Of a stretch of DNA of 64,000 nucleotides, positions 40,484-64,000 are shown piece by piece. Both the position numbers and the translations under genes were made by a program. The DNA is taken from the NCBI RefSeq assembly GCF_000427685.1, contig NZ_ATYM01000003.1, positions 1 through 64,000 of the forward strand, given 5' to 3'. The stretch's first letter is position 1. Every line of letters begins with the position of its first letter. This stretch comes from Haloplanus natans DSM 17983. Its GTDB lineage: Archaea; Halobacteriota; Halobacteria; Halobacteriales; Haloferacaceae. The notes under the pieces are model-generated. The model was given only the letters and a program-made list of their open reading frames with translations, was not told the origin of the DNA and did not search any database.

Positions 40484-43400
40484 ATGTCTCGGCTTCTCTG
40501 TGGCCCGGATGCTGTTGCGGTCGATCGGGCAGCGCTCAACTGGGCCGCGACCCAATCGGGAGAAAATCCCGAAAGCGTCCTCTACATCGCGAATCAACCT
40601 CATCGCCTCCCAGAAATCGAAACGCAGTGGGAAGACATCGGTCGCCCGCTTGAACTCACTGCGCTCACACTTGATGAGTTCGTCGACCGGTGTTACGACC
40701 GCGAAGCGATCGGCGGTACTGCTTCGCGGATGGACCAGCCAACCCGCCTCCGACTCGTCGAACAGTCTCTCTCAGACTTATCCGCCAAGTGGTCGCTCAT
40801 GGAGGGGGACGGACTGCCTCCGACCGGTCTCGTCGAGCAGATGGAGGACCTCCTGAGCCTTGTCGAATTCGCCGGACTACTCTCACCAGAAGCCGTCCGC
40901 GACCGCCTGAGCGACGAAGGACTGGTCAATCTGAGCGCCGAACTCGAGGCCATCACCAAGCGGTTCTACGATGGACGCGAGGGACTTCCCGATGGTTCAG
41001 CTACGACTCTCTGGGCTGAGCGGTACCGACGGGTGGCGAATTCCAATCCTGCTCAGTGCTTCCCACACACTGACGCCGTCATCATCGGTGGGTTCGACAC
41101 GTTCTCTGTCCTCGCATCGCGTGTAGTCGAGACGATCACGGAAACTTGGCCGACAGTCGCGACCTTCTCCCGGTTGACCGGAACGGACTCTCCGGGCGGT
41201 GTCGACGTCGCAACGGCCCCTGCATGGGAGTTCTTCGTCAACGACCTCGAATTCGAAACAGATGCAATCACAGCCCGTGAGTCTCGCCCACCCGCGAATC
41301 GACGGTTAGCGTCGGCACCCTTCCGTCCTGATGCCACCACACTCTCCCTTGACGAGACGACTGTCGAGACTGTCGTCCCGTCATCGCGTCCAGGAGAAGT
41401 ACGGTATACGGGACGGCAGGTACAGGAACTCTTGGGTGACGGCGTTGATCCGAACGATATCGGCGTTATCGTGACCGCGCCATCGGCGTACGCCCATCGT
41501 CTCGCCGGTGAGTTCTCTGCGCGATCCGTTCCATACGCTGTTGCTCGGGACTACGATCTCGATGGAACGTCGGTCGGAGCTGCTCTCCTGACCGCGCTGG
41601 AGCTGCTCGACGAGACAGAGATCACTGATGACCTTCGCAGCCTCCTCGATAACCCACTCGTAGAGCCGGTGCTGCCGGGTTGGGAGGATGTCGATAGCGA
41701 ACAGGCACACGACGCGATCGCGGACGTGGAAGAACTCAGCGATGTCGAGGAGCCGTACCGAGTGGCTATCGACGAGCTTCTCGTCGAAGCAAAAACCGTG
41801 GCAGATGACGGGAGCATCGAAGCCTATCGCCACTTCGTTGAGTGCCTCGGAATCGAGGACACGGTAGAAGATCGAACGACGACCGGGTCGCAACGGGTCG
41901 TCTACCGCAGTGCCGAGCGAGTCCTTGACGCAGTCGAACGGACGGGAGACGGAGACGACCTCGAACGTGCTCGGCATGCACTCGGTGCCGTCTCCGTCAC
42001 CGACGATCCAACAATTCGCGATGGGAGAGTCGAAGTCCTCGGAGCGGCGGAACTCGGGATGCGAACGTTCGACCACGTGTTCGTCCTCGGTCTGACAGCG
42101 TCTCACTTCCCGAGTTCAGCGAATCGACTCGCACTTGTGAACGCTGTAACAGACGCACATCCCGACTTTGCCGAAGCCGACCAAGCTCGACGGGCCGAGT
42201 ACCGCATCGCAAGCCTCGTTGCCGCCGCTGAGACCGTCACGCTCTCGCGGCCGAAACAACAACTCGACGGGACAGCGTACATCGATGCTGGGATCCTGGC
42301 CGAGTTCCGTCGAATCACCGAAACGGTGCCACAGCGACGGGATGAGTTCGGCCACCTCGTCGGGCAGACCCCGACCGGTCGACGGGATAAAATCGGTGCG
42401 CGAGCTGACGCACAGCGAGCGTTCGCAACTGCTGGCGCTCGAGTCAGTCTAGACACACTCGGCGAGTACGCGGCTGCCGCGTCGTCAACGGGACTGTTCG
42501 TAGACACAGCGGGCAGCAGTGATCGACTCGATACAGAGGCAACACCAGGAGAGACAGCGATTGATGGCATTCGTACGGCAGCCGACCGTGGGTTAGCACG
42601 TCCATCAGAGAATACGGGCTGGCTCACTTCGGGGACCGCGCAGGGCCTCTCGTTCCACCTTGACCGACTCTCGCCGACGCAGGTAGAGCGATACGCCAGT
42701 TGCCCGTTCCGCTTCTACGCAAAGGAAGTACTCGGGCTAGAGGAAGAGGACCGAGACGAGGGACCAATCAATCGTGGGCACTACGTTCACGAGGTTCTGG
42801 AGCAGTTCTACACGGAACTTCGAGACGAGGTTGGGTCTCCGGTTTCGCTTGCCGGGTTCCATCAAGATGACCTGGAGACGCGACTCCTCCGTGTCGCGGT
42901 CGACGAACTCCAAGCCGTCGACGACGAGTTCGACGACCGCTGGCTCTTCGAACTACTGGCCGGTCTCGGTGATGCTGATCAAAACGAGTACTACAACCGG
43001 ACCGCCGTCGATGGACGACCTGCGGGTATCCTCGTGCGGTTCCTCGAAGAAGAGCTCGCATTGTACGTCGACCCGGACAATCGGCTTCAGAACGGTCCAT
43101 TGACGGCGGCACCGGCCTGGTTCGAGACCAAGCTCTCCTTCGAGGTGGACGGAACCACGATCCGCGGTGTTCTCGACCGTGGCGAAACGACGTCCGATGG
43201 GAGAGCTATCGTCCGCGACTACAAGACAGGATACACCTCCTCCGAACGCGACACGCTGGACGGACTGAGCTTCCAACTCCCGATTTATGCGAAGATGCTG
43301 GAGGCGAATGTCGACGAGGTTACCGAAGCCGTCGGAGGCGGGTACTACCGGCTCAAGGAACCCGGAAAGGTGAGCAGCACCGCTGGTCAAATCGGGTTCG

Positions 43401-43777
43401 TCGGTGATGACCCGAAGAACGCGAGCTGGCGCGGTAACTCATATCGTGACGGATACGGCGGGACACCGATGGTCTACCAGAGTTCGGACAAACCTAGCAT
43501 CGAGACTCGAGCAGGCTTCCGAGAGTTCCTCGATGACGTCGTTCCGCAACGACTCAGCGATATCGTCTCCGGCATCGAAGCCGGAACGTTCCATCCGACG
43601 ATCAACGACCCCGACGACGCCGGGTGTTCAAACTGTCCCTTCCGCGATGCCTGCGACGTCCGGTCGTACCGGCGCCAACTATTCATGGAAAACATGGAAT
43701 CCGAGGGACGAGATGCGTACGTCCCACCGATTGCTCGCGGCGTAGAGTGGGCTCCTGCGGTTGAGGAGGGGAACTGA
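40484..43777 (+). CDS. AddB-like PD-(D/E)XK nuclease/inactive helicase
   Basis: A 1097-residue protein from ATG 40484 (a GTG at 40454 is also in frame). The layout is that of AddB: a helicase-like body whose Walker A position reads 'LLCGPDAVAVDR' and so lacks the Lys/Thr, then a C-terminal nuclease. The nuclease starts with 'LSPTQVERYASCPFRFY' (about 728-744) and RGHYVHEVLEQFY, has catalytic VRDYKTG (about 909-915) and iron-sulfur cysteines CSNCPFRDAC (about 1047-1056) together with Cys 739. AddB pairs with AddA to resect DNA ends. The next gene overlaps its stop by one base. Haloarchaea normally use Mre11-Rad50-HerA-NurA, so an AddAB-type pair here suggests a special role. Confidence 0.85.
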   Translation: MSRLLCGPDAVAVDRAALNWAATQSGENPESVLYIANQPHRLPEIETQWEDIGRPLELTALTLDEFVDRCYDREAIGGTASRMDQPTRLRLVEQSLSDLSAKWSLMEGDGLPPTGLVEQMEDLLSLVEFAGLLSPEAVRDRLSDEGLVNLSAELEAITKRFYDGREGLPDGSATTLWAERYRRVANSNPAQCFPHTDAVIIGGFDTFSVLASRVVETITETWPTVATFSRLTGTDSPGGVDVATAPAWEFFVNDLEFETDAITARESRPPANRRLASAPFRPDATTLSLDETTVETVVPSSRPGEVRYTGRQVQELLGDGVDPNDIGVIVTAPSAYAHRLAGEFSARSVPYAVARDYDLDGTSVGAALLTALELLDETEITDDLRSLLDNPLVEPVLPGWEDVDSEQAHDAIADVEELSDVEEPYRVAIDELLVEAKTVADDGSIEAYRHFVECLGIEDTVEDRTTTGSQRVVYRSAERVLDAVERTGDGDDLERARHALGAVSVTDDPTIRDGRVEVLGAAELGMRTFDHVFVLGLTASHFPSSANRLALVNAVTDAHPDFAEADQARRAEYRIASLVAAAETVTLSRPKQQLDGTAYIDAGILAEFRRITETVPQRRDEFGHLVGQTPTGRRDKIGARADAQRAFATAGARVSLDTLGEYAAAASSTGLFVDTAGSSDRLDTEATPGETAIDGIRTAADRGLARPSENTGWLTSGTAQGLSFHLDRLSPTQVERYASCPFRFYAKEVLGLEEEDRDEGPINRGHYVHEVLEQFYTELRDEVGSPVSLAGFHQDDLETRLLRVAVDELQAVDDEFDDRWLFELLAGLGDADQNEYYNRTAVDGRPAGILVRFLEEELALYVDPDNRLQNGPLTAAPAWFETKLSFEVDGTTIRGVLDRGETTSDGRAIVRDYKTGYTSSERDTLDGLSFQLPIYAKMLEANVDEVTEAVGGGYYRLKEPGKVSSTAGQIGFVGDDPKNASWRGNSYRDGYGGTPMVYQSSDKPSIETRAGFREFLDDVVPQRLSDIVSGIEAGTFHPTINDPDDAGCSNCPFRDACDVRSYRRQLFMENMESEGRDAYVPPIARGVEWAPAVEEGN

Positions 43778-46700
43778 TGCGCCGAGACGACCTCACTGAC
43801 CAGCAGGACGACGCCGTCACAGCGTTCTCACAGAACTATCCACTCACGGCCGGTGCCGGGACCGGGAAGACGACGACGCTCTCGTTCCGGTATCTAGCGC
43901 TTCTGGAGGATCATCCCGACGCCATCCCCGAGAACGTTCTCGTGACGACGTTCACGCGACGGGCTGCGCGTGACCTCACAGAGACCGTCCGCGAACGCGT
44001 CTTGGACCGACTCGCCACCGCAGACGCCGACCACGAACGCTGGCGCGACGTTCTCAACGGGCTGGACGACGCATACGTCCACACGCTGCACGCATTCTGT
44101 CAGCGCATCCTGTCCGAACACGCGACCGCAGTCTCCGGACTCGCCCCCGGATTCGATACCCTCGACGATGTCGAAGCGAGTAGACTCCAGCGGGACATCG
44201 TCGACGAACTCATGGAAAAAGAACCCCGAGAGGTCGGGCTCCTGCTGGACGCGTTCTCGGAATACTCCCTCCGCGAGGTTCTCGAGGACCTGTTCGGTGA
44301 GCGCCCTGGCAGCGAAGCCTGGGCCGACGTCTGGAGTGCACCCGCTCGTACTGTCGACGACTATGTAACCTACGTCGAAGAGGAACTCCACCCCTTCCCC
44401 GCCGACGAGGTGGATGCACTCTGTGCCGACGAGGAACTCCGAGTGCTCGTAGAGGACCTCCAAGAACTCGTTGCCGACCTCGACGAGACTGACCCCGGCG
44501 GACGGACCGAGCGCGTCTGGACTGCAGTCAAACTCTTCGACGAGCCCGACGGACTAGACGCTCGGGATTCCGTTCGTGACCGCCGAGATCGGATCTACGA
44601 CGTGTGTGACGAACTCACCAAGTCCGGGCACGACGAGTACGCGAACTACTCTCCGGTCAAAGGGGACTGGAGCGGGACCGACGAAGACGCCGACCGTATC
44701 GGAGGCATCGTCACCGAGATCGTTGAACGACTCGATGCGACACATCGGTCTGCGGAGGGTGACGGTCTCGACATGGCCGTCGACCGCGAGGGCGCGCCGT
44801 ACTACTTCGCGTTAGCTCGTCTGTTCGATGAAGCTGCCCGCAGGTACGCCGACCGGAAACACGAGCGAAACGTACTGGATTACACCGATCTGGTCCAGCA
44901 GACACGTAACCTTCTCCACCCGGAGCGTGGGAACGACGCCGTTCGGGAATCGCTCGCTGACCAGTTCGACTTCGTCATGATCGACGAGGTTCAGGACACC
45001 GACCCGAACCAATGGGACATCGTTCAGTCACTCACCAGCCTCGCCGCCGATGACACGGCGTACAGCGCGCAGAACGTCTTCGCGGTCGGCGACGAGAAAC
45101 AGTCGATCTACCGCTTCCGGAACGCCGACGTCGCTGTCTTCCAAGAAGCGCGGAGCGCACTCGTCGGCGCGAACGGGAGCGAGAACACCGCAACGACAGG
45201 CGGAGGAGACGATGTTGTCGGGTACCAGCTTCAGGACAACTTCCGAACACTCCCACCGCTACTCCGGTTTCTGAATAGTCTCTTCGAGGATGTCTTCGAC
45301 GACGACGCGGACGACGCCTTCGAGGCAGCACCACAGCCTCTCCGTCCCCGACGAGACAATCCTCACGACGTAACGCCGACGATGGAGTACTTGTTCGTTC
45401 CTGACAACGACCTCCGACCGAACGTCCTCGCTCCTGATCACCCGCTGAACGACGCACCCCCCTCCGCGCGACGGTGGGCGGAAGCTCAGTCCGTGGCAGC
45501 GCGCGCTACGCGCCTCGTCGACGACGAGACACGGGTCTACGAGCCTGATTCGGACGACGGCCCGGAAAGTCGGCCGGTGACGTACGACGATATTGCGGTC
45601 ATCATCCGGAAGCGAACCCATCTCGACGAGTTCAAGCGTGCGTTCGACGATCACGAGGTTCCCTATACCGTCGTTCAGGGAGAGGGATACTTCGAGACGC
45701 CAGAGGTTCGGACCCTCACGAACCTGTTCCGCGTCCTCGCCGACCCAACCGACGACATCCGCCTGTTCGGACTGCTTCGCTCCCCGATGTTCGGCTTCAC
45801 TGATGACGAACTCGCCCCAGTCGTGGAGGGTGGCAACGTCTGGGCGTCACTCAGTGAAACGGACGACACCGCGCTTAGGCGCGGTCATTCTTTGCTCGCC
45901 GAGTTGCGAACGCTCGCCGGTGCCTCTGAGGACGCCGCCGGTCCCCAGGTTGACTCGTGGGCAGAACTCCTCGACATCGCGCTTGACGCGACCGGTTACC
46001 TTGTGAGTCTCAGTGCGGATGAACGGCCGCAACAGGCACTTGCCAACGTCGAACAGTTCGAAGAGTACCTGCGTGAAGCCGTCAGCGACGCCGGTAGTCT
46101 GCGCTCACTCGTCACGCGCCTTGACGAACCTCAAGAGTTCACCAACTACGACCCCGAAGCGGCGATCCCGGACGGCGAAACCGGCGTCCAGATACTCACT
46201 GTCCACGCCGCAAAAGGGGAAGAGTTCCCCGTCGTTATCGTACCCGGACTCAGTGACAAATTCAACACTGATCCACCACTTGCCGGCGGAACCGAGTTCG
46301 AAGACGTGAACGACCGCCCAGCACTCGGGCTCTCTGTTCCCGACAGCCATGACCCCTTCGACACTACTGACACCGTCGCGAAGAAAGGGATCCGGTCACG
46401 CCGTCTCGCCAAGCTCTGTGCCGAAGAGAAGCGAACCCTGTACGTCGCCTGTACGCGCGCTCGGGATCATCTCATTCTGGCCGGCACACACGGAACCGAA
46501 GACGACGAATCACTCACGACGCTGGAAGACCCGGAGACGGACGAACCCAAACGGTGGAGCGACTTCGTCCAGAAGTCACTGCTCGGTGACGAAGAGTTAC
46601 TCGCCACTCTTGAGGCAAACGGGGAGGTGACCGGTCAGCTGCACGTTGATTCGCTCACTCGGAGCGAGGACCCCGAACAGGGTGGCCCCAGCTACTCGGT

Positions 46701-47568
46701 TCGGCTCCCACAGCAAGCAGTGATACAGGACGAGGACGTGGATGTCGAGGCTCCTCCCACGACTGTCGAAATACCGCAGCGACAGCCTGCCCCTATCCAG
46801 TATCGCCTCTCGCCGTTCCAAGTCGCGGACGTTCTGAGCGACAACCAAGACGGCGAACTGGTGTTCGACGAAGCGAACCGTATCGTCAATTACCGACGGG
46901 GAGCTGACGACGATACCGAGTGGGACGAAGAGGACGACACGCTTGCCGAAGAGGGGGACGGGTCGACCGGGCTGTCGGGTCGGTTCTTCGGCGAAGCGGT
47001 CCACCGAATCTGCGAACTCCAGCATCCTCCCGAGCGCTGGGCCGACATTATCCATGACGCGCTCAGGTCGATGGACTATGAGGGAGCGGTGACTGCAGAC
47101 GACCGCGACCGCGTCGCTGAACACGCCCAACGTGCGAACGGCTACGTCCGTCATGTGGCTGACAGCGACGACGTCGTCTATCGCGAACTCGAAGCAAGCG
47201 TGGAACTGGCCCACGGTTCCATCTCCGGTATCATCGACTGCCTCGTACTTGGTGACGAGACAGCTACTGTGGTCGACTACAAGACCGGTCATGTCGACGA
47301 AACGAAACTGGAGCAGAAGACCGAATACTATCAACCACAACTCGAGGCGTACGCTCTGATGGTCGCGGCCTTCGACGACGACCGTCCGGTTACGACGAGC
47401 CTCTACTTCACCGAAATCGAAGCCGACACCGGCGTCGAATTCAGCACTGGGAGTGGCGACGGGTCGCTCGGAGAACTCAAATCCAGTCTAGACCGGCGAC
47501 TTCGTGAGGAAATCGAATCGCAGACACAGGCAGAGTTCGACACAGAGGACAGGACGCCAGACCTCTGA
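43777..47568 (+). CDS. AddA/UvrD-like helicase-nuclease
   Basis: A 1263-residue protein. Walker A is GAGTGKT (26-32); motif Ia VLVTTFTRRAARDL follows. Walker B is 'FVMIDEVQDTDPNQWD' (about 397-412). Motif VI is 'LYVACTRARDHLILAG' (about 887-902). The C-terminal PD-(D/E)XK nuclease includes HRICELQHP, 'GIIDCLVLGDETATVVDYKTG' split as D...DYKTG (about 1150-1170), and a Gln/Tyr helix ('YYQPQLEAYALMVAAF'). This is the AddA plan: superfamily 1A helicase plus nuclease. It overlaps the AddB-like stop by one base and is followed 4 bp later by a third nuclease gene. Together they should form a processive end-resection machine. Confidence 0.9.
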   Translation: MRRDDLTDQQDDAVTAFSQNYPLTAGAGTGKTTTLSFRYLALLEDHPDAIPENVLVTTFTRRAARDLTETVRERVLDRLATADADHERWRDVLNGLDDAYVHTLHAFCQRILSEHATAVSGLAPGFDTLDDVEASRLQRDIVDELMEKEPREVGLLLDAFSEYSLREVLEDLFGERPGSEAWADVWSAPARTVDDYVTYVEEELHPFPADEVDALCADEELRVLVEDLQELVADLDETDPGGRTERVWTAVKLFDEPDGLDARDSVRDRRDRIYDVCDELTKSGHDEYANYSPVKGDWSGTDEDADRIGGIVTEIVERLDATHRSAEGDGLDMAVDREGAPYYFALARLFDEAARRYADRKHERNVLDYTDLVQQTRNLLHPERGNDAVRESLADQFDFVMIDEVQDTDPNQWDIVQSLTSLAADDTAYSAQNVFAVGDEKQSIYRFRNADVAVFQEARSALVGANGSENTATTGGGDDVVGYQLQDNFRTLPPLLRFLNSLFEDVFDDDADDAFEAAPQPLRPRRDNPHDVTPTMEYLFVPDNDLRPNVLAPDHPLNDAPPSARRWAEAQSVAARATRLVDDETRVYEPDSDDGPESRPVTYDDIAVIIRKRTHLDEFKRAFDDHEVPYTVVQGEGYFETPEVRTLTNLFRVLADPTDDIRLFGLLRSPMFGFTDDELAPVVEGGNVWASLSETDDTALRRGHSLLAELRTLAGASEDAAGPQVDSWAELLDIALDATGYLVSLSADERPQQALANVEQFEEYLREAVSDAGSLRSLVTRLDEPQEFTNYDPEAAIPDGETGVQILTVHAAKGEEFPVVIVPGLSDKFNTDPPLAGGTEFEDVNDRPALGLSVPDSHDPFDTTDTVAKKGIRSRRLAKLCAEEKRTLYVACTRARDHLILAGTHGTEDDESLTTLEDPETDEPKRWSDFVQKSLLGDEELLATLEANGEVTGQLHVDSLTRSEDPEQGGPSYSVRLPQQAVIQDEDVDVEAPPTTVEIPQRQPAPIQYRLSPFQVADVLSDNQDGELVFDEANRIVNYRRGADDDTEWDEEDDTLAEEGDGSTGLSGRFFGEAVHRICELQHPPERWADIIHDALRSMDYEGAVTADDRDRVAEHAQRANGYVRHVADSDDVVYRELEASVELAHGSISGIIDCLVLGDETATVVDYKTGHVDETKLEQKTEYYQPQLEAYALMVAAFDDDRPVTTSLYFTEIEADTGVEFSTGSGDGSLGELKSSLDRRLREEIESQTQAEFDTEDRTPDL

Positions 47569-47571: not shown

Positions 47572-48357
47572 ATGACGTGGAGAGAGCAGTGGCCGGGTGA
47601 GCCACGCGGGACGGAGCTCGACGAGGGGGATGAAGAGGGCTCAGGTCCTTTCCGTATTGCTCTCAAGCCCTCTGCTTGTGAAGCCTCCCCAGAGATTGCG
47701 GCACTCCGAGAAGAGTCGGGGGAGGTACTTACGTACGAATCTGAAGGGGAAGCGGCGAAGATACTCGTCGACGACATCGATTGTCCCGGACTGCAATTCC
47801 AAGCAGCAGCTCCGAATGACCCCGCAGAGGTGGACGCATACTTAGTGAAGCTTCGCGATCCTGAACCGCCCTCAACGGAACGGGGACCCCCAGAAGACGG
47901 CTGGACGTTCAACATGCGGGCCCAGCAGGTCGGGGCACTCGCTGAAGCGCTGTTCCGCGCATACGGGTGGAATCCACCTCCAATCGTCGCCTACGCTGCG
48001 AAGGATCTGGGCATTGACCCCGAAGAGTTCCGGGTGCAGGTAAACCCAGCACCCGAGAGCGTCGGCCAGTTCGAGTTCAGTGGTGGCGACGGGAAGTGGA
48101 TTCCAGACTTCGAGTTCGTCGTCCACCGCCGAACTGACGACCACCCATTCGGCTATGGAGGTCCGGTACTGAAGCGATACATCGCCGAAGTCAAACACGG
48201 TTCCACCAACTTCGAACGAAACCAGCGGGCACAGATGACCCAGTTGGCTCACAAGGGGGGACAATATTTGGACGTACTCATCATCCGTGTCAACCTCGAA
48301 GGTACTCCGCAGACGTACGATCTCACAATTCGGTCAGTCGCCGACGGACTCCAGTAA
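47572..48357 (+). CDS. Small PD-(D/E)XK nuclease-like protein, third gene of the AddAB-like operon
   Basis: A 261-residue protein starting 4 bp after the AddA-like stop. The C-terminal half has a nuclease-like core: 'GKWIPDFEFVVHRR' (Asp near 178), then 'RYIAEVKHGSTNFERNQRAQ' with Glu and Lys (about 206-208) and a following helix, giving a D-E-x-K set. The N-terminal half is acidic and unrecognised. The position in the operon suggests it acts with the helicase-nuclease pair, perhaps as an accessory nuclease or end-binding factor. It converges with the SNF2 gene with a 53-bp gap. Confidence 0.7.
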   Translation: MTWREQWPGEPRGTELDEGDEEGSGPFRIALKPSACEASPEIAALREESGEVLTYESEGEAAKILVDDIDCPGLQFQAAAPNDPAEVDAYLVKLRDPEPPSTERGPPEDGWTFNMRAQQVGALAEALFRAYGWNPPPIVAYAAKDLGIDPEEFRVQVNPAPESVGQFEFSGGDGKWIPDFEFVVHRRTDDHPFGYGGPVLKRYIAEVKHGSTNFERNQRAQMTQLAHKGGQYLDVLIIRVNLEGTPQTYDLTIRSVADGLQ

Positions 48358-52510: not shown

Positions 52511-53806
52511 CTAGTGAGCCGCGTAGATAGCACGAAGCGAATCTTCAGCGACCGCGACATCGTGTCGAAGCCCAATAACAGCGGCTGTATTAACGGGTAG
52601 TTCGCGGACATCGAGGGTCCAGCGGTGTCGTATCTGCTGTGCATCAGGTGGAAGGTCATACAAACGGTACTCCCGCCCGTTTGCCAGAAGTCCAATCTCG
52701 CATGAAAACGTCTGCATATACCGTTCAAGTTGACCGACAGCACTTTCGAGATCGATATTCGGAGCCTTAGCCTCAATTGGAATAAGCGGCTGATTTGACC
52801 CATCAGTGAGCATATAATCGACAGTTCCTCCACCGCCAGGTTCAGAATACTCGATTCGGACGTTATTTGAATACACGTTCCAGCCGAGTTTGTGCAGTAA
52901 GGGAGTAATGATTTTAGCTTGCGCTTCTTCCTCTGTGAGTGATTGCGTACTGAGGACGGTCGTGCTCCGGAGCATCCACTCACGAAGGTCGGCAGTGAAA
53001 TGTTCAGGCTCCGCAACGTATGCGTTGAGGTACGTTTCTGCGGCCTCAACATTAGGCCGATGAACCGTTCGGTCGGTTGATTCGATGTTATTCACCAGTA
53101 GGCACAACTGCGATCGCTGGTGGGTTTCTCCCTCTACGTACATTTGGCCCGTCAGTGCGACCGGTTCGTACAGCGAGAGTGAATCAATCAGGCTATGTTG
53201 AAGTTCGATGTCAACAGTAGTGTCCTCCGTTACATCGAGCGGATGAATACGACCTTTTTGTGCATCCATCATTTGTGACCGCAACCCGTCAAACTGGTAG
53301 CCGTCTTTGAAACCACACTCCGGGCATGCAGACAAGGATACGGACTCTGGACCGATAACTGTCATACGATGAGTGTGCTCACAGTGTGAACACTCATATA
53401 CTGCCTTGGCCACGCGAACCTCGGGGTCATCAAGCGATTCAACGTACCCGATCACGCGCACTAATTCTCCAACACGATTCGGCGCTTCGGCGATGGGTGT
53501 CTCGAAAGGGACATCGGTCAATCGAATGAATGGTGGGTCGGCACGATTGGTTGTACCATCATAGAAGGAAACCTGTCCATACGGCGGAATCGCTGGATAC
53601 GTCGTCAGCGCCTGTTCTAACGCCCGCAAGAATGCATCAGGATTCGAGCGAAGTGTACGAGACCATTCAGAGTTATATGTCTCAATCGTGTCCCACGAGA
53701 TTTCGAGATGACGTTGGTCAGGAAATGCTGCTGCCAGTTCAACCACAGCGACCTGAAGTGCCTCGCCAATGAATTCGTGGAACTCCTGTTCGTCGGGCAA
53801 TTCCAT
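52511..53806 (-). CDS. MCM-N-like OB/zinc domain fused to HsdR_N-type nuclease
   Basis: A 431-residue protein. Residues about 92-235 follow the N-terminal domain of archaeal MCM: 'ELVRVIGYVESLDDPEVRVA', zinc cysteines YECSHC (139/142) and CPEC (161/164), and the DAQKGRIHPL strand that in MCM reads like DSQK.RIQE. After a linker, residues 285-385 form a PD-(D/E)XK nuclease of the type I restriction HsdR_N kind: 'GTVDYMLTDGSNQPLIPIEA' with Asp 330, Glu 345 and Lys 347, then a helix 'LESAVGQLERYMQTFSC'. No AAA+ helicase domain is present. The OB/zinc part likely grips ssDNA or dsDNA and directs the nuclease. I do not know this fusion from described systems. It has its own promoter. Confidence 0.75.
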   Translation of the reverse strand: MELPDEQEFHEFIGEALQVAVVELAAAFPDQRHLEISWDTIETYNSEWSRTLRSNPDAFLRALEQALTTYPAIPPYGQVSFYDGTTNRADPPFIRLTDVPFETPIAEAPNRVGELVRVIGYVESLDDPEVRVAKAVYECSHCEHTHRMTVIGPESVSLSACPECGFKDGYQFDGLRSQMMDAQKGRIHPLDVTEDTTVDIELQHSLIDSLSLYEPVALTGQMYVEGETHQRSQLCLLVNNIESTDRTVHRPNVEAAETYLNAYVAEPEHFTADLREWMLRSTTVLSTQSLTEEEAQAKIITPLLHKLGWNVYSNNVRIEYSEPGGGGTVDYMLTDGSNQPLIPIEAKAPNIDLESAVGQLERYMQTFSCEIGLLANGREYRLYDLPPDAQQIRHRWTLDVRELPVNTAAVIGLRHDVAVAEDSLRAIYAAH

Positions 53807-53820
53807 CTCTCGTAGGCTTG

Positions 53821-56744: not shown

Positions 56745-56746
56745 AT

Positions 56747-57391
56747 TCAATTTACGTGGTCCGTTAGCAGCGTCCGTAGTGCCTTCTCGCCGTTCGGAGA
56801 CGACGGCGACCGACACTTCGCGTGCCAGTAGTAGCACTCTTCGTCACTCATTCGTGCGATGCCACGACAGAACGCTCGCATCCGGTCGACCCGCTGGATG
56901 GGCTTCACGCCGAGGAAGGCTAGTGCCAGTCGAACGCCAACCGTCTCTGGGAGGAATACTTCGGTTGCACCCCCAGTGGCGAGAGCAGACTCATCTAAAT
57001 CGGCATCACCGAGCGTTTCTCGTACTAGTGGGAGAATGGCCCGGAGCCGACTCTCAGATAGTTGCGTGACCTTCACCGCCACCCAGGCATCCCACTCCCA
57101 TCTGTCGACCTCTGAATCTGCTGACTCCCCGAACACCGATCCGAATGTTTCGGTCACTAGGCCGCGGTTTGGATTTCCACGCTGGAGACGGTCGCGACGA
57201 GCGGTTGCCTGTGCCTCGGGTAACAGCTCGTACAGCGTCAGCGATGCACCGTCGGCGTCGTCGCGACGGACGAGCGCGAAGGTCGGGCGACCCCCGTAGA
57301 CGCTACTGCCGAACTGACCCCCTCCGATTGTTTCTTCCTCGGGCCCGAGTGGTGGCGTCGCGTCTGCGTCAGGGGTAGGGTGGGACGTCAT
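56747..57391 (-). CDS. Small conserved protein of the DUF499-DUF1156 operon
   Basis: A 214-residue protein whose ATG overlaps the DUF499 stop (ATGA) and whose stop is 2 bp before the methyltransferase start. The C-terminal part has a recognisable pattern, 'LPETVGVRLALAFLGVKPIQ', VDRMRAFCRGIARMSDEECY and YWHAKC, which I recall from small proteins placed between DUF499 and DUF1156 genes; DUF7680 or DUF3780 are candidate names but unsure. It may bridge the ATPase and the methyltransferase. No catalytic motif is visible. Confidence 0.65.
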   Translation of the reverse strand: MTSHPTPDADATPPLGPEEETIGGGQFGSSVYGGRPTFALVRRDDADGASLTLYELLPEAQATARRDRLQRGNPNRGLVTETFGSVFGESADSEVDRWEWDAWVAVKVTQLSESRLRAILPLVRETLGDADLDESALATGGATEVFLPETVGVRLALAFLGVKPIQRVDRMRAFCRGIARMSDEECYYWHAKCRSPSSPNGEKALRTLLTDHVN

Positions 57392-60300
57392 TGCTGAACC
57401 TCTGCGGGCACTTCGACCGGTCCTCGTCCTTGAACCTTCACGTCGATATTCGTCGACCCGAGTTCGTCCTGGAGCTCCGCGAGCAGATCGTCATCCCCGT
57501 CCGTGATCGGCTCGGGGTCGCTCAAGTCGACACGGAACTTCAGTTCGACGAGGGACGCGCCGTCGAACGGGTCCGGCTGGTTCGTCACGCGGGAGAACTC
57601 GTCGATACCGCCGGTGAAGTCGGCCTGGTATGACGCCCCGCTCGACGACTCCGTCTTGTACCGCATCCGTACCGAAACGTTGTCCGCCCGGTTCTTGAAC
57701 GCTTGGCGTTGGGCGATGAACGACCCTTTCGACAGCTGATCGTCGCCACCGACTTCGATGGTGATGCGGTCGATTCCCGGACCGCTACCCGAGGAGGACT
57801 TCCCGAGGGCATGCGTTCGAACCTCGTTGAAGGCTCGGGAGGCAGCCATCACGCTCGTTGAGCGCTCCCAGTCCTGAGGCTGGGCACACTCGGCACAGAG
57901 CCCACGGGGGTTCAGTCCACTCTGACTCGCGACCGTCTTCCCACAGTTGGAACACTCGAGGTCATCCGGCTCGTGCTGTGAGCAGTACTCTCCTTCTTCA
58001 TCGACTTCGACCTCGCACCCCGGCTCTGCACACGTCGTCTCTTCGGTCTCTGGAGGTCGGATGATGTCGTGGTGGACGTCGAGGAGCGCGTTGACATCGG
58101 TGTAGACGACGTACTCGTCGCCGATCTTGACGTCCGAATCACGAATGCTCGTGCGGACGTCCGGCGACCCGGTGAGTGGATTGGCCTTCCGCCAGTTCTC
58201 GGGACGGTCGTCCTCGTCGCCGTCCCAGTACGCGAGGCCGTTTTCGCCGGCGGTGCTGTCCCAGTAGGTGTAGCCGGCATCGTCTACCATCTTCGCTATC
58301 GTCTTCCGAAGCGGCTTGGTGTTGAGGAGATACGGAAGCCCAGGCTTCTTCGCGAACTGCGTGACCAGCTGTTCGGTGGTCATGCTGTCCTGGGTCTGCT
58401 GCCAGAGCTTCTGTTTGAAGAACGCGACTCCCTTCGGCCCCGCGTCGGCGCGAATCAGCCGGTCTTCGAGTGTTTCCTCGACGGCGTTCACGAGCGTCGT
58501 GCCACCGTTCGCTTCCGTAGCGTTGATCGCTAGATGCGTCAGGCCGTCTCGGTCGACGTAGTACAGGTGACGGTAAACCCCGCGGACGAGTTCACCCAAG
58601 AGTCCGTGCGTCTGGTCACGGCGCTCACGGAGCTCTTCGATCTGCTCGTTGGAGAGATCGGCTGTCTGTTGGGAATCGTCAAGGAGTGCCTCGATGGCTT
58701 CCAGCTGACGGGCCTCGTCGATTGCACCTTGGATTCGTTCCTTGTCAGGGGCGAGGAAGAGGATGTAGTTCTTGTAGACCCGACTCTGGGTCTCGCCGCC
58801 GTGCTTGGAAGCGGATTTCTGGTACAGCGTCTGGATCTTCTCCGGAATCTCACTCCCGCCATCGGAGACGGGAGCGGTATCCATGTGCATCACCGCGAGC
58901 TGCGGCTTGGAGACCTTGTCGGGGAGGTCGGCCGGTGACTCCGGGAAGACGACAGTTTTGAAGCCGCCAGTTCCGATCTCGGAGTTCTCCAACCGCGATT
59001 CGAATCGATTCCGAGCCTGCGCGTCGGGCGTGTTGTCCACCCGCTGGTCGATGATACGGATGAGATTCGGATCGGACTTGAACCGAACTCGCTCCTCGTC
59101 GTAGAGGTAGTAGCACGCGACGTTCATGTCTCCGCCAGACAGCGCCTCCAACGCCGAGTCGTAGTTGTCGAAACGGATGTCGGGGTGGCCGAGTGCGGCG
59201 TTCATCTCCGCACGCGTGAGTCCGGTTGCCTGCTCCCCGTAGGCGAGGCTATGCCAGAGGACAGTTGTCGTCAGATGGCCGCCGAGCGGTGGAATCCCTT
59301 TCTCTGTCCACTTGCGGTCTTCGAGCTGAGCGTGGGCAGTGTTATCTTCGCTGTATATGTCGGCCGAGACAGCCGCGCTCAGGTCGACGAATTCGAACAG
59401 CGTCTCATGAAGCGTCGAGTCGATACTCCCGTCAGGAGCGTTGTCGGCGGGCGTGAGGTCGTAGAGTCGAATCCAGTGGCGGTCGTAGTGGTCGGGCTGA
59501 TGGTTCCAGAGGTAGTAGACTGCTCGTGCGAGGAGCTTCAGCGCGCCCCGAGTTCGCTGGAACTTGGGGATCGTATCGATCTTCTCGGTGAGTGTATCGA
59601 TGATCGTCGGATGGAACGGGTACTCGCGTTCCAGCCGGTCCACGAAGCTGGCGTCCGTCGCCTCCTGCGGGAACTGTCGGTCGCTGTCAGCGTAGTACTG
59701 GAAGTATGACTCCGCGAGTCTCTCGGCCTGCCCCCGTTCGATGTCCTCGAAGAGCCGGTGCTGGAGAACCTGTCCTACCTCGTTCTCTGAGGTCGGGGTG
59801 ACCGTCTTGTGTTGCCGACGGCCGATCTGGTTCAGTTCGTCGATGAGTGTCCGAACTTCCTCTGCCTCTTCCTCGAAGGCAGTGTCTGCGATACTGTATA
59901 CGACCGTGACCTCGTCGACCTCTGACGCGGTTTCGAGGAGTGAGAGAACGAAGCTCAGGGTCTGACTGGCTAACGTCGCGTTCCCGACTTCGACCGCGGA
60001 CGCCGCCTCGAGGTAGGCTGCAATCTCGTCGATAAGGATGAGGGTAGGACCATCACCGAGCTCGAACAGCCCCTTCAGCGTGTTCCCGCCAGGTGCGTTC
60101 CGGTCTTGGTCATACTCTTTGAGATACTCGTAGCCATCGAGGCCATACAGCTGGTAGGCGATTTCGCCCCACATCGTCCGCGTGTTCGGAGCGTTCGGGT
60201 CTGACCGATCGCTCCGGGCATTTCGAGCGTCGACGTGTCCTCCAACGAAGACGGAGGTGTCGACATCAAGACCCTGATCTACCGCATCCAGATAGGCAGC

Positions 60301-60696
60301 ACCGAGGTCGTCCTCACGCTCTACGAGATGGCGACTGAGATCGCCAATATCAGTCGGATTATTCGCCAGATGGTACGAGGCGATGAGGTCGTGCGTCTTA
60401 CCCCCACCGAAGCGGGTGTCTAGACACAGAATACTGCTGGAATACCCGCCGCTGTCGTATCCGTCAGCGGCGAGGAACCGTCCCGTGAGATTACTCAGGA
60501 GCGTCCGCAGCCCGTCAGTCGGGTACGTCATATCGAAGAACTGCGTCGCATTCCGATAGACCGGAGCGGAGTCATCCGGCGAATGAGCGACAGTCGCCAG
60601 GCTAGCTGCGAACTGATCCTCCTGTAGCGTCCCGTCGAGGACATCTCCCCGAGGAGTACACGCCTCAAACAGACTCGGATAGTCTGAGCTACTCAT
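57388..60696 (-). CDS. DUF499 P-loop ATPase (BrxC/PglY-like)
   Basis: A 1102-residue protein. Walker A is 'DTRFGGGKTHDLIASYH' (about 93-109) and Walker B is 'TLILIDEIAAYLEAAS' (about 218-233). A long helical middle includes 'REYPFHPTIIDTLTEKID'. Zinc-like cysteine groups occur near 885-935 (CAEPGC, then CSNCGK and CAECAQ), and the end is a beta-rich domain ('SLVELKFRVDLSDPE'). DUF499 proteins are large ATPases related to BREX BrxC and Pgl PglY. They probably couple ATP hydrolysis to DNA scanning or assembly of the modification complex. The gene overlaps its neighbours on both sides by ATGA. Confidence 0.88.
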   Translation of the reverse strand: MSSSDYPSLFEACTPRGDVLDGTLQEDQFAASLATVAHSPDDSAPVYRNATQFFDMTYPTDGLRTLLSNLTGRFLAADGYDSGGYSSSILCLDTRFGGGKTHDLIASYHLANNPTDIGDLSRHLVEREDDLGAAYLDAVDQGLDVDTSVFVGGHVDARNARSDRSDPNAPNTRTMWGEIAYQLYGLDGYEYLKEYDQDRNAPGGNTLKGLFELGDGPTLILIDEIAAYLEAASAVEVGNATLASQTLSFVLSLLETASEVDEVTVVYSIADTAFEEEAEEVRTLIDELNQIGRRQHKTVTPTSENEVGQVLQHRLFEDIERGQAERLAESYFQYYADSDRQFPQEATDASFVDRLEREYPFHPTIIDTLTEKIDTIPKFQRTRGALKLLARAVYYLWNHQPDHYDRHWIRLYDLTPADNAPDGSIDSTLHETLFEFVDLSAAVSADIYSEDNTAHAQLEDRKWTEKGIPPLGGHLTTTVLWHSLAYGEQATGLTRAEMNAALGHPDIRFDNYDSALEALSGGDMNVACYYLYDEERVRFKSDPNLIRIIDQRVDNTPDAQARNRFESRLENSEIGTGGFKTVVFPESPADLPDKVSKPQLAVMHMDTAPVSDGGSEIPEKIQTLYQKSASKHGGETQSRVYKNYILFLAPDKERIQGAIDEARQLEAIEALLDDSQQTADLSNEQIEELRERRDQTHGLLGELVRGVYRHLYYVDRDGLTHLAINATEANGGTTLVNAVEETLEDRLIRADAGPKGVAFFKQKLWQQTQDSMTTEQLVTQFAKKPGLPYLLNTKPLRKTIAKMVDDAGYTYWDSTAGENGLAYWDGDEDDRPENWRKANPLTGSPDVRTSIRDSDVKIGDEYVVYTDVNALLDVHHDIIRPPETEETTCAEPGCEVEVDEEGEYCSQHEPDDLECSNCGKTVASQSGLNPRGLCAECAQPQDWERSTSVMAASRAFNEVRTHALGKSSSGSGPGIDRITIEVGGDDQLSKGSFIAQRQAFKNRADNVSVRMRYKTESSSGASYQADFTGGIDEFSRVTNQPDPFDGASLVELKFRVDLSDPEPITDGDDDLLAELQDELGSTNIDVKVQGRGPVEVPAEVQQ

Positions 60697-60905: not shown

Positions 60906-60930
60906 CCGGATGTTTTGTCTGGCTTACCGA

Positions 60931-60942: not shown

Positions 60943-61060
60943 TTTACTTAGACTAAGTTGGCTGAGCGACTCTATCTGACACCGACGCAAAGGAGTTCGC
61001 GGCGCAAACTGGAGGGCGGGAATCCTTGGATTGGAACCTGTTAAGCAGAGATCCCACCGG

Positions 61061-62749
61061 CTAGCAGATGAGCAGGAATAACCAAAACGGAAGATAACAG
61101 ATGCTCACATCGTCCTTCTCGACAACCAGTGACTCGTTTTCTCGCACCTCTTTCGGGAGGCTATCCGTGATGATGAAGCGGTATGGTGCTTCGTAATCGA
61201 GTTCACGGAGATCCTCACTATCGTCCTCAGTATGCTGCCCGACACTGGGGTCGAACTCCGTCGCGATTTGCTCTGCCAACTCAGTATGTGGATGGTAAGA
61301 TAGAATGAACGGCAGCACTTTCCCCTCTCGATGGAGAACATAATCAACTAATCCCGCGTCAGTCGGACAGTACTCGACTTCGTATGCTTTCACCGCGAAG
61401 GACAGACGCATCGCGTGGTCGAACGCCACAGTCCGAGCCAATTTGTACTCGAAGTCGAAATTGAGGTCGTTCTGATGACTGTATTCCTCGAATCCGAAGT
61501 GTTCCTGGCGCTGTGAGAGTAGCACAACGTGTCGAGGATTGCGAAGATAGAGTCGCGTTCGTCGGTGGCGCCGCAACGAATAGTCGTGAGACTCGGTTAC
61601 TGCGATTCCATCGTCGAGGATGTCGAGGTAGCTATCGACCGTTCGTCTGTCGACGCCGATTCGGTCGCTTATTTCTGTATATTGGAGTTCCTCGCCCCCC
61701 TGACTGGCAGCAATCGAACTCAGCCGATGAAGGTTCTCGGGATTCTGAATGGAGCCGTATTTTGCTAGTCCCTTGTAGAGGTATAGGAGGAAGTGCGAAC
61801 GGACAATCTCGTTTCTGACGGAGGAGCGATCAGTCTGGTGCAGTGTACCACCTTTTCTCAGATAATCGCGCGCAGCGTCGTGTAGATCGTCGCGTTCGGA
61901 AGAATCGAAGAAGTCGAAAAAGAGCGAGCTGAGTGACTCGACTGCGGAATCAATGCCTGTGTCGGATGATTTCAGGTTGAGTTCTCTCCGAACATCTTTG
62001 ATCGGATTCGGGCCAGAAATCCGATCAGATCGGAGGGATTCAAGTTGCTCTCTAAACTCGTGGTTGAAATCAACACTCAGTCCTCCCTCATCTTCTGGAT
62101 GCCCGATGGTGTCGACGAATTTCATCGGAAGAACTCCCCAGGGATGTTCGACGTGATCGATCTTATCCGCCTTCGTCAGCTCACGAAGATTGACTTGGTC
62201 CCTGACGATCCCTGTCAAGAACAGATACGTGTCCTCATTTACGAACTCTAAGAGAGTCTCCTTCTCATTCTCATCGAGATTGAGAATGTCGACATCGTCG
62301 AGGAGAATATATTTCCTTCCATGCCGGGGAGCGATGTGAGTGTAGAAGTAGTCTATCACCTGTTTCAGCCGCTCTATTCCCTCATTAGGTCGTTCTAGAT
62401 GATATTGGGATTCCTCGAGAGGGAGATAGAGTATTTGACGCGGAGAGGTAGAAGAGACTATGTCGAATTCAGGGTCTTTTGGAGGAAATTCGGTAGTCCC
62501 AATTAACGCTGCGATGAGCTGATACAGGAGCGTCGTCTTGCCAATTCCAGTTGACCCGTAGATTGGATAAACTAAGTTGTCGGTACCCTTTTTATCCTGT
62601 TCGTGTACCGCTTCCAGAACCTTGTGGAAGTCTGAACGAGGAGTGAGGTTTGTAGCCTCCTCCAGATCTTGACCTACCCCCTCGCTCCACCATTCGTTAT
62701 GACGCTCGGCGTCGGCGATGAAATCCTCGGCTCGGGATTCCTCAGTCAT
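61061..62749 (-). CDS. AAA ATPase with DUF4143-like C-terminus, degenerate nuclease site
   Basis: A 562-residue protein from ATG 62749 (an upstream in-frame start at 62776 is less likely). Walker A is 'YGSTGIGKTTLLYQ' (about 64-77), Walker B is KYILLDDVDIL (about 151-161). A winged helix ('YTEISDRIGVDRRTVDSYLD') lies near 350-370 in the usual AAA_14 place. The C-terminal region follows DUF4143 proteins: 'LARTVAFDHAMRLSFAVKAY', 'LVDYVLHREGKVLPFILSYH', where the expected ExK is replaced by ILSY, so nuclease activity is doubtful. It ends with a hydrophobic tail, PFWLFLLI. It is divergent from the Argonaute gene and may be functionally tied to it. Confidence 0.8.
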   Translation of the reverse strand: MTEESRAEDFIADAERHNEWWSEGVGQDLEEATNLTPRSDFHKVLEAVHEQDKKGTDNLVYPIYGSTGIGKTTLLYQLIAALIGTTEFPPKDPEFDIVSSTSPRQILYLPLEESQYHLERPNEGIERLKQVIDYFYTHIAPRHGRKYILLDDVDILNLDENEKETLLEFVNEDTYLFLTGIVRDQVNLRELTKADKIDHVEHPWGVLPMKFVDTIGHPEDEGGLSVDFNHEFREQLESLRSDRISGPNPIKDVRRELNLKSSDTGIDSAVESLSSLFFDFFDSSERDDLHDAARDYLRKGGTLHQTDRSSVRNEIVRSHFLLYLYKGLAKYGSIQNPENLHRLSSIAASQGGEELQYTEISDRIGVDRRTVDSYLDILDDGIAVTESHDYSLRRHRRTRLYLRNPRHVVLLSQRQEHFGFEEYSHQNDLNFDFEYKLARTVAFDHAMRLSFAVKAYEVEYCPTDAGLVDYVLHREGKVLPFILSYHPHTELAEQIATEFDPSVGQHTEDDSEDLRELDYEAPYRFIITDSLPKEVRENESLVVEKDDVSICYLPFWLFLLIC

Positions 62750-63034
62750 GTTGTCTATACTTATCCGGCCAATCATAAGTATTACTCCATCCTGATGTCG
62801 CTATCTGTGAGAGTACGCCATTCGCCTACGAGTACGCTGTGTAAATAGCGTAGAATGGTAGAAATAAAATCACTGATTTTTGCGGATGGGACCGATCTGA
62901 TGTGAATGTATCCGCGCAACTTCCCGGGAGAGAACAGAGTTGTCTGTATTCTATTTCTACTATTCTAGAAATAGCGTAATCGAACTTCCACTAGTGAAAA
63001 GTTATTTGTCGGTGGTTGCCCATGTCGTTAGTAG
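62750..63034. promoter_or_regulatory. Divergent control region of the ATPase and Argonaute genes
   Basis: A 285-bp AT-rich region. AAATAGCGTA occurs as a direct repeat at 62843-62852 and 62969-62978. Next to each copy TAGAATGGTAGAAATA (62851-62866) and its near-complement TATTTCTACTATTCTA (62952-62967) form an inverted repeat with one mismatch, about 85 bp apart. A TATA-like TTATTTG at about 63002-63008 precedes the ATG at 63035 at normal distance. The layout suggests looping or cooperative control of both genes. Confidence 0.6.
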
Positions 63035-64000
63035 ATGCCGACGCAGGCCGACATCGAGGATGGGGAACGAATCGACATCACGGTCCAGGTGGTGACTGAA
63101 CTGGACCGTCCATCGAGTAAGATGGCCAAGCGACTCAAGGTCCGCGACACCGCGGACAACGAGTTCCCACTCGCCATCTGGAAAAACAACGCGCTGAGTG
63201 ACTTCGCTTGGGAGTCGGGCCGCTGGTACGAACTCGAGAACGCTAGGGGAAACGAGTACCGTGGCAAGAAGAGTCTGAACGGGTCCTCACGACTACGCGC
63301 CGAAACCGTCGAACCCCCCGTGGATGACGATGAGGACAGCAGTGACTCAGAGAAGACGTCCGAGGGCCAGCTCTTTGACACGCTCCAGAACGGCCTTCCG
63401 TACCTCTCGCTTTTTCCATTCGACCGCGACTTCGAGACGCTGTCTGTCTACGAGTATCGCATTGAGGCCGACGACGCGTTCGAGGACAGTCCGATGGACG
63501 CGACGTACAATCTTGCAGCCTACCTTCGCTCGTCCAGTGACGCGGCCGTCACGCACGCAGGAGTGATGTCTCTCATCTCCACCGAGCCGTTGGAGACGTA
63601 CCTCCCGGACCCGTTCACCCTCACGGACGAGACTCGGGTCATCCTCCGAGCCAACGAGACGGCTGACAACGAGACGGTGGTTCGTCTCCTTCAGCAGCTG
63701 ATCAAGAAGAGCATCAACACCGACGAATACGAAACAGGGCGAGTGGATCGTATTCGCACTAAGGCTCCCATCATCAGTGGATCCGGGGGTCTCTTCGAGG
63801 CGTGCCTCGCATACCGAGTGGGTATCGAGGTGCTTCCATCCGGCGATGCCTACGTCGGAATCGAGGTCAGCCACCACGCCCGCAGCCAAGCGACTGTCGA
63901 CGAGTACATGGATCGAGTGAACGCGACGGTGGACGAACTCGTCGACACGCACGTCGAACACGACCCAGAAACGTACTCGACGCCCGGGAGCGGGCGACTG
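63035..64000 (+). CDS. Argonaute of the Natronobacterium gregoryi type (partial, N-terminal 322 codons)
   Basis: The frame is open from ATG 63035 to the window end (966 bases, no stop). The first ~90 residues are an OB fold: 'ERIDITVQVVTELDRPSSK', FPLAIWKNNALSDFAWESG and 'GRWYELENARGNEYRGKKSL', closely following the repA-like domain at the start of NgAgo. After an acidic linker (95-112), the region 125-320 follows the N/L1/PAZ-like part of the same family, for example 'LSVYEYRIEADDAFEDSP', then 'GVMSLISTEPLETYLPDPF' and 'YRVGIEVLPSGDAYVGIEVS'. MID and PIWI, with the catalytic DEDX set, lie beyond the window, so nuclease activity cannot be judged. An Argonaute binds a guide and target nucleic acid. 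Confidence 0.87.
   Translation, partial: MPTQADIEDGERIDITVQVVTELDRPSSKMAKRLKVRDTADNEFPLAIWKNNALSDFAWESGRWYELENARGNEYRGKKSLNGSSRLRAETVEPPVDDDEDSSDSEKTSEGQLFDTLQNGLPYLSLFPFDRDFETLSVYEYRIEADDAFEDSPMDATYNLAAYLRSSSDAAVTHAGVMSLISTEPLETYLPDPFTLTDETRVILRANETADNETVVRLLQQLIKKSINTDEYETGRVDRIRTKAPIISGSGGLFEACLAYRVGIEVLPSGDAYVGIEVSHHARSQATVDEYMDRVNATVDELVDTHVEHDPETYSTPGSGRL

What the first reader, a model, noticed from the sequence alone, without database searches (positions are those of the whole stretch)
40484..64000. Argonaute-centred defence island with AddAB-like, DUF499/DUF1156, PLD-SNF2 and MCM-N/nuclease genes
Over 23 kb the window stacks a haloarchaeal Argonaute, a methyltransferase, a BrxC-like P-loop ATPase, a PLD-SNF2 helicase, an MCM-N/HsdR_N fusion, an AddAB-like helicase-nuclease operon with a third nuclease, and a DUF4143-like ATPase. 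Sequence shows the gene content and tight coupling inside sub-operons. The families are known from DISARM/BREX-like loci and pAgo loci; their joining into one composite system is inference. It may be a previously undescribed combined modification, resection and guide-based system.
Basis: partly seen in the sequence, partly recalled or inferred. Interest (0 to 1): 0.93.

Follow-up and report, generated by a model that had tools for sequence, protein, structure and literature searches.

The report
Argonaute islands with dedicated DNA-resection engines
This haloarchaeal defence island is a mosaic: a movable methylation-based restriction cassette sits between an Argonaute operon and an AddAB-type DNA-end-chewing operon. 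A survey of relatives shows that haloarchaeal Argonaute genes repeatedly come with their own DNA-end-processing machine, which may supply their guides or finish off cut DNA.

Summary
The genes described are there, but they are not one system. Three modules have separate DNA-level boundaries: (1) AddB-AddA at 40.4-47.5 kb; (2) a known DUF499-centred BREX-related/Hma restriction cassette at 48.4-61.0 kb; (3) a DUF4143 ATPase divergent from Ago-YdjM-AgaP at 61.0-68.4 kb, a published APAP Argonaute system whose PLD partner lies just beyond the window. The cassette occurs alone, at about 91% DNA identity, in Haloplanus rubicundus. Ago and DUF499 co-occur only at chance level in 394 genomes. What survives is the resection-plus-Argonaute half. 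Of 55 haloarchaeal Ago loci, 47 hold an end-processing helicase-nuclease (43 without counting MrfBA): AddAB, a split AddAB, Mre11-Rad50(-NurA)-HerA, or MrfBA. Control windows: 1 of 37. Engines swap between near-identical Agos: ours has AddAB, a 91% relative has Mre11-Rad50. DUF4143 orthologues sit beside Ago in 17 of 18 cases. No held paper found reports the AddAB or Mre11-Rad50-HerA link. Most likely the engine makes guides and/or degrades Ago/AgaP-cut DNA. That mechanism is inferred, not shown.

The parts
40454..43777 (+). AddB-like inactive helicase/PD-(D/E)XK nuclease
   Evidence: PDDEXK_1 3e-32; profile hits B. subtilis AddB 3u44_B, 6e-12
43777..47568 (+). AddA-like UvrD helicase with C-terminal PD-(D/E)XK nuclease; the only AddA in this genome at E<=1e-30
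   Evidence: UvrD-helicase 5e-50, UvrD_C, PDDEXK_1; genome search
47572..48357 (+). putative third PD-(D/E)XK nuclease; homologues sit next to Ago in three other loci but mostly elsewhere
   Evidence: E125, P178-D179, E206-x-K208 conserved; adjacency; other contexts; absent in Salinirubellus salinus
48411..52340 (-). HKD/PLD-SNF2 helicase-nuclease of the DUF499 (BR/Hma) cassette
   Evidence: SNF2, Helicase_C, PLDc_2; PADLOC PLD_Helicase, HmaA, PbeA
52511..53806 (-). MCM N-terminal OB/zinc domain fused to HsdR_N nuclease; optional insert in the cassette
   Evidence: MCM_OB, HSDR_N_2; 96% copy in Haloplanus rubicundus, missing in S. salinus
53874..56744 (-). DUF1156 N6/N4 DNA methyltransferase (HmaB/PglX-like); middle region replaced relative to sister cassettes
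   Evidence: DUF1156, N6_N4_Mtase, HmaB; 65% identity against 88-98% for neighbours
56747..57391 (-). DUF7680 protein, a constant component of haloarchaeal DUF499 cassettes
   Evidence: PF24728 1e-39; found in all 20 DUF499 loci examined
57388..60696 (-). DUF499 AAA+ ATPase (HmaC)
   Evidence: PF04465 1e-30, HmaC 5e-89
61061..62776 (-). DUF4143-type ATPase with degenerate nuclease-like domain, divergent from ago
   Evidence: AAA_14, DUF4143, PDC-S01; 17 of 18 homologues of at least 61% identity lie within 3 kb of an Ago; alignment
63035..64000 (+). long-A Argonaute, N-terminal part; gene ends at 65578 outside the window, followed by YdjM-like 65627-66208 and AgaP 66260-68407
   Evidence: PADLOC pAgo 2e-66; Piwi 1e-12; DEDD D630 E666 D700 D824; AgaP HSK at 105-107 and GSPN at 155

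Best explanation
The region is a mosaic of two defence units. Unit A is a long-A Argonaute system: DUF4143 ATPase, Ago, a YdjM-like membrane protein and the PLD nuclease AgaP, with the AddAB-type helicase-nuclease as its DNA-end-processing partner. Unit B is a self-contained DUF499/DUF1156/HKD-SNF2/DUF7680 restriction-modification-like cassette, inserted between AddAB and the Ago half. Proposed working of unit A: AgaP, Ago or unit B breaks or nicks invading DNA. AddAB loads on the ends, unwinds and degrades them, and releases single-stranded pieces that Ago can take up as guides. Guide-loaded Ago then cuts more invader copies, giving AddAB new ends. The DUF4143 ATPase may load or regulate the complex. 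Other haloarchaeal Argonautes fill the same slot with a split AddAB, Mre11-Rad50(-NurA)-HerA or MrfBA. Shown here: modules, boundaries, gene linkage and its repeated origin. Inferred: guide production, the feed-forward loop, the DUF4143 role, and that AddAB in this window (15 kb from ago) serves this Ago.
For: Of 55 haloarchaeal Ago loci, 47 hold a helicase-nuclease end-processing module, 43 without MrfBA-only loci; controls 1 of 37. In 25 of 55 an engine gene lies in the same co-directional chain as ago, often overlapping by 4 bp. AddAB abuts Ago in Halobaculum litoreum (AgaP-Ago-AddB-AddA), Halomarina oriensis (AddB-AddA-Ago) and Halorubrum kocurii (convergent). Split AddAB confirmed by profile alignment: splitB1 to AddB 45-589, splitB2 to AddB 736-1080, splitA to full AddA, 9e-74. 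Engine class changes at least 16 times on the Ago tree; Ago-linkage changes 5 times on the AddA tree. Halorubrum salsamenti Ago (91%) has Mre11-Rad50 36 bp after AgaP instead of AddAB. The nearest AddAB operons without Ago (G127, G381) carry a DUF4143 gene directly downstream. Eight Ago-less loci join DUF4143 with split AddAB, and five of those also show AgaP at 77-84% identity. All 7 NurA-bearing Ago loci tested hold a NurA in addition to another genomic copy. RecBCD takes part in generating pAgo guides in E. coli, and TtAgo co-precipitates AddAB (PMC10269773).
Against: In this window AddAB is 15 kb from ago, with the DUF499 cassette between. Most AddA-bearing genomes (63 of 79) lack Ago, and extra NurA copies occur in some Ago-less genomes, so the engines are mobile modules in their own right. 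AddAB is also enriched near DUF499. In E. coli RecBCD is not required for making pAgo guides (PMC10269773). Eight Ago loci show no engine in the stretch held. The families MRNH, MrfBA and split AddAB were picked from Ago loci, and the controls are few and not matched for island context.
Confidence: 0.58

Rival explanations
1. Plain defence-island clustering: AddAB, the DUF499 cassette and the APAP Argonaute are three independent systems that landed on one replicon, and AddAB is a stand-alone anti-invader or repair nuclease.
For: The DUF499 cassette clearly moves alone; AddA occurs in 79 of 394 genomes, mostly without Ago; in this window AddAB is 15 kb from ago; Ago and DUF499 also cluster when both are present (5 of 7 within 40 kb).
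Against: Islands do not explain direct, co-directional, overlapping gene chains of Ago with AddAB, split AddAB or Mre11-Rad50-HerA in 25 of 55 loci, the repeated origin, or swaps between near-identical Agos.
Confidence: 0.27
2. One reading: methylation, resection and guides act as one system, the methyltransferase marking self DNA for all parts.
For: AddAB is enriched near both Ago and DUF499; the order AddAB to Ago is conserved in Salinirubellus salinus at about 90% identity.
Against: No Ago-DUF499 co-occurrence above chance (7 against 7.6); no DUF499 hit within 10 kb of Ago in the named haloarchaeal Ago loci, including those with Ago-AddAB; cassette alone in Haloplanus.
Confidence: 0.08
3. 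AddAB here belongs to the replicon's own replication and repair set (next to Orc1/Cdc6), not to defence.
For: An Orc1/Cdc6 gene lies at 38580-40088 beside AddB; in S. salinus AddB also follows a Cdc6 gene, with polB and replication factor A upstream.
Against: The nearest AddAB relatives (G127, G381) show a DUF4143 gene, and no Orc hit, in the stretch held; the Orc beside AddB differs between the window and S. salinus (23% match).
Confidence: 0.07

Closest known systems
APAP: haloarchaeal long-A Argonaute + PLD nuclease AgaP (Cheng et al. 2024, PMC11442185)
   Same: Long-A Ago with intact DEDX tetrad; AgaP with split HxK ... GSxN motif, His105/Lys107 at the same positions; same operon
   Different: The paper notes only an unspecified helicase gene near some operons; here a full AddAB pair, split AddAB or Mre11-Rad50-NurA-HerA, plus a DUF4143 ATPase, are found as recurrent partners
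DUF499-centred BREX-related (BR) / Hma systems (PMC12839542)
   Same: DUF499 ATPase, DUF1156-type N6-methyltransferase and HKD-SNF2 helicase, as in Type-2 BR
   Different: DUF7680 sits where Type-2 BR has DUF3780; an optional MCM_N-HsdR_N nuclease gene is added
Bacterial AddAB (RecBCD-type end resection)
   Same: UvrD-type AddA with C-terminal nuclease; AddB with inactivated helicase and C-terminal nuclease; overlapping gene pair
   Different: Present in only 79 of 394 haloarchaeal genomes counted, often on plasmid-like contigs and beside defence genes, sometimes with AddB split in two
pAgo operons with UvrD/PD-(D/E)XK and PLD genes (Ryazansky et al. 2018, PMC6299218)
   Same: A UvrD helicase orthogroup with PD-(D/E)XK motif and PLD proteins are listed among pAgo operon genes
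   Different: That paper does not contain AddA, AddB, Mre11, Rad50, HerA or NurA; the complete engines and their interchange are not described
PDC-S01 candidate defence ATPases
   Same: The DUF4143 protein matches PDC-S01 models
   Different: The nuclease E-x-K is lost and the subfamily is tied to Ago/AgaP/AddAB loci

Membership tests
APAP Argonaute system | long-A pAgo with intact DEDX tetrad | tested here: met
   D630, E666, D700, D824 invariant in 15 sequences
APAP Argonaute system | adjacent PLD protein with split HxK ... GSxN motif | tested here: met
   715 aa gene 51 bp after the YdjM-like gene, HSK 105-107, GSPN 155
APAP Argonaute system | plasmid/virus restriction activity | not testable with these tools
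   needs experiment
DUF499-centred BR / Hma | DUF499 ATPase + N6-methyltransferase + helicase in one locus | tested here: met
Type-2 BR | N-terminal HKD nuclease on the helicase | tested here: met
   PLDc_2 at 105-174 (weak, E 0.003), PbeA match at 21-344; FHPK ... GSVN in the sequence
Type-2 BR | stand-alone DUF3780 gene (98% of taxa) | tested here: not met
   DUF7680 found instead, no DUF3780 hit
BREX | PglZ gene | tested here: not met
   no PglZ hit among the tested proteins
DISARM | DrmA/DrmB/DrmC set | tested here: not met
   only helicase-domain cross-matches to DrmA/DrmD
AddAB | AddA: UvrD helicase + nuclease; AddB: AddB fold + nuclease, paired | tested here: met
   profile alignments
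AddAB | Chi-regulated end resection | not testable with these tools
   needs biochemistry
PDC-S01 | ATPase fused to active PD-(D/E)XK domain | tested here: not met
   E-x-K replaced in all aligned members

The most novel reading that the evidence does not exclude
Catalytic archaeal Argonautes are modular systems that carry their own DNA end-resection engine (AddAB, split AddAB, Mre11-Rad50-NurA-HerA or MrfBA, swapped freely in evolution) as a dedicated guide-maker and target degrader, with a DUF4143 ATPase and a PLD nuclease; the same core also works without Argonaute.
Probability: 0.45. Interest if true: 0.88.

Novelty: new variant of a known kind. Interest (0 to 1): 0.72.

Why it matters
How catalytic prokaryotic Argonautes get their guides, and how they cope with double-stranded DNA without a helicase, is open. 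In E. coli, foreign pAgos were seen to exploit host RecBCD; only a fifth of the haloarchaeal genomes surveyed have an AddA at all. If Argonaute loci bring their own engine, guide production becomes testable by deleting one neighbouring operon in tractable haloarchaea. The interchange of unrelated engines in one slot would point to end resection itself, not a particular protein, as the shared need. The swapped middle region of the methyltransferase in an otherwise near-identical DUF499 cassette also suggests where that system's target specificity lies.

Tried and rejected
Whole composite as one unit: rejected, since the DUF499 cassette moves alone and is not co-distributed with Ago. MCM_N-HsdR_N as a core component: rejected, found in the cassette only here and in Haloplanus; remote homologues lie elsewhere. 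The third nuclease as an AddAB subunit: not supported, absent in S. salinus, and its closest annotated homologue, in Natrinema, is in a metabolic context; adjacency to Ago in three loci kept as a weak lead. Second AddAB-DUF499 copy on the S. salinus plasmid taken as evidence of duplication: rejected as probable assembly overlap, since it repeats the other end with broken genes. AlphaFold model of the third protein failed (pLDDT 44), so no fold search was made. Literature searches for pAgo with AddAB, NurA or HerA gave no relevant paper; subscription papers and preprints are not held.
Full report
OBSERVATION. Reading left to right: AddB (40454-43777, +), AddA (43777-47568, +, one-base overlap), a 261-residue protein with an E..PD..ExK pattern (47572-48357, +); then on the minus strand DUF499 ATPase (57388-60696), DUF7680 (56747-57391), DUF1156 methyltransferase (53874-56744), MCM_N-HsdR_N (52511-53806) and HKD-SNF2 helicase (48411-52340); then a DUF4143-type ATPase (61061-62776, -) and Argonaute (63035 onward, +). 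Beyond the window the Argonaute ends at 65578 and is followed by a YdjM-like gene and a 715-residue PLD protein. That protein carries HSK at 105-107 and GSPN at 155, the split motif described for AgaP of the APAP system (PMC11442185). The Argonaute has the DEDD tetrad.

MODULES. The megaplasmid of Salinirubellus salinus (NZ_CP104004, another family) holds AddAB, the DUF499 cassette, DUF4143 and Ago-YdjM-AgaP in the same order at about 87-89% DNA identity, but lacks the third gene and MCM_N-HsdR_N. Haloplanus rubicundus pCBA1112-02 holds only the DUF499 cassette, HsdR_N gene included, matching 48425 to 60965 at 91% DNA identity; of the flanks only one short distant match (37.5-37.9 kb, 71%) was seen. 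Halorubrum salsamenti holds DUF4143-Ago-YdjM-AgaP (61036-68379) and continues with Mre11-Rad50; neither AddAB nor the cassette is in the stretch held. Three sets of edges therefore cut the region into three modules.

THE DUF499 CASSETTE IS A KNOWN KIND. It matches PADLOC HmaA/B/C and the DUF499, DUF1156_MTase and PLD_Helicase models, and the DUF499-centred BREX-related systems of Rakesh and Krishnan (PMC12839542). It is nearest Type-2 BR (HKD on the helicase) but has DUF7680 where Type-2 has DUF3780. DUF7680 was found in all 20 haloarchaeal DUF499 loci examined. Within near-identical cassettes the methyltransferase has been partly replaced: 65% protein identity against 88-98% for its neighbours, with residues about 186-601 (S. 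salinus) unalignable at DNA level. This suggests that the methyltransferase middle region carries target specificity (inference).

CO-OCCURRENCE. In 394 Halobacteriales genomes: Ago in 47, AddA in 79, DUF499 in 64. Ago and AddA share 16 genomes (9.4 expected, P=0.012); 7 pairs lie within 25 kb (0.24 expected) and 3 within 0.5 kb. AddA and DUF499 share 23 (12.8 expected, P=0.0009), 9 within 25 kb. Ago and DUF499 share 7 (7.6 expected), though 5 of these lie within 40 kb. The random-placement null ignores island clustering, so the distances alone are not decisive. (AddA was counted from the hand-copied match table without three weak fragments; the search tally itself is 82.)

ARGONAUTE PARTNERS. 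The named loci fetched by an Ago profile show AgaP-Ago-AddB-AddA in Halobaculum litoreum, AddB-AddA-Ago in Halomarina oriensis and Ago convergent with AddA-AddB in Halorubrum kocurii. A large Ago clade has DUF4143 divergent from Ago-AgaP followed by 685-, 301- and 1164-residue genes with gaps of 5, -4 and -37 bp. Profile alignment shows that these are AddB cut in two, plus AddA. Other loci carry Mre11-Rad50-NurA-HerA (NurA PF09376 and HerA PF01935 confirmed) or an MrfB/MrfA-like pair (RNase_H_2+HHH; DEAD+MZB). In all, 47 of 55 haloarchaeal Ago loci hold at least one such module, 43 without MrfBA-only loci; 25 hold an engine gene in the same co-directional chain as Ago; control windows gave 1 of 37. 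The families were chosen from Ago loci, windows differ in length, and the controls are few; these are caveats on the contrast, not on the listed gene chains.

INDEPENDENCE. On the Ago tree (quick method, some long branches) engine class changes at least 16 times, including within the group of our Ago: AddAB here and in S. salinus, Mre11-Rad50 in H. salsamenti. On the AddA tree Ago-linkage changes 5 times. All 7 NurA-bearing Ago loci tested hold a NurA in addition to another copy elsewhere in the genome, while 22 Ago-less control genomes all have at least one NurA and a few have an extra one.

DUF4143. Of 18 genomes with a homologue of at least 61% identity, 17 have it within 3 kb of Ago. The next clade (57-59%, eight genomes) has no Ago in the locus but has the first split-AddB gene in all eight and AgaP visible in five. 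The 51-52% members of G127 and G381 directly follow AddAB pairs whose AddA is 56-58% identical to ours. One ATPase subfamily thus connects AddAB, AgaP and Ago. Its nuclease-like domain lacks E-x-K throughout.

MECHANISM. Established by others: RecBCD takes part in generating small guide DNAs for pAgos in E. coli although it is not strictly required, and TtAgo co-precipitates AddAB (PMC10269773); AgaP restricts plasmids and boosts virus immunity (PMC11442185). Inferred here: the neighbouring engine supplies single-stranded pieces as guides and degrades cut invader DNA; DUF4143 loads or gates it. In this window the assignment of AddAB to Ago rests on conserved order in S. salinus and on relatives, not on direct adjacency.

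PRIOR ART. Ryazansky et al. list a UvrD orthogroup with PD-(D/E)XK motif and PLD proteins in pAgo operons but do not mention AddA, AddB, Mre11, Rad50, HerA or NurA. Cheng et al. mention only a helicase gene near some APAP operons. Makarova et al. 2009 do not mention AddA, RecB, UvrD, Mre11, Rad50 or NurA. Text searches for such links found nothing relevant, within an open-access library only.

VERDICT. The composite is over-joined: the methylation cassette is separate and known. The resection-plus-Argonaute association is real, wider than this window and apparently undescribed.

Noticed in passing
window 53874-56744: DUF1156 methyltransferase is a mosaic: its middle region is replaced between cassettes whose other genes are 88-98% identical, suggesting specificity exchange.
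   Followed up: partly
L238-L245 (Ago-less loci): DUF4143 ATPase with split AddAB and, in several, an OB-exonuclease and AgaP (77-84% identical to ours) but no Argonaute: the core may exist without Ago.
   Followed up: partly
L153:8736-9872, L239:17378-18505, L176:16878-17894 and others: A protein related to the N-terminal OB-like domain of these Argonautes, in some members with a weak DEDD/PolB-type exonuclease match, recurs in Ago and AgaP loci.
   Followed up: partly
L060, L166, L171, L176, L085: An MrfB/MrfA-like pair (RNase_H_2+HHH exonuclease, DEAD+MZB helicase) recurs beside haloarchaeal Argonautes.
   Followed up: partly
L196 (Lachnospiraceae MAG): Bacterial long Ago followed 1.8 kb downstream by AddB-AddA on the same strand; possible bacterial parallel.
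   Followed up: no
NZ_CP104004.1 215000-249332: End of the S. salinus plasmid record repeats about 21-55 kb of its start with broken genes; probably an unresolved circular overlap in the assembly.
   Followed up: partly
L101-L104, L107: A different AddAB subfamily lies about 4-7 kb from the HKD-SNF2 gene of DUF499 cassettes in five genomes without a nearby Ago.
   Followed up: partly
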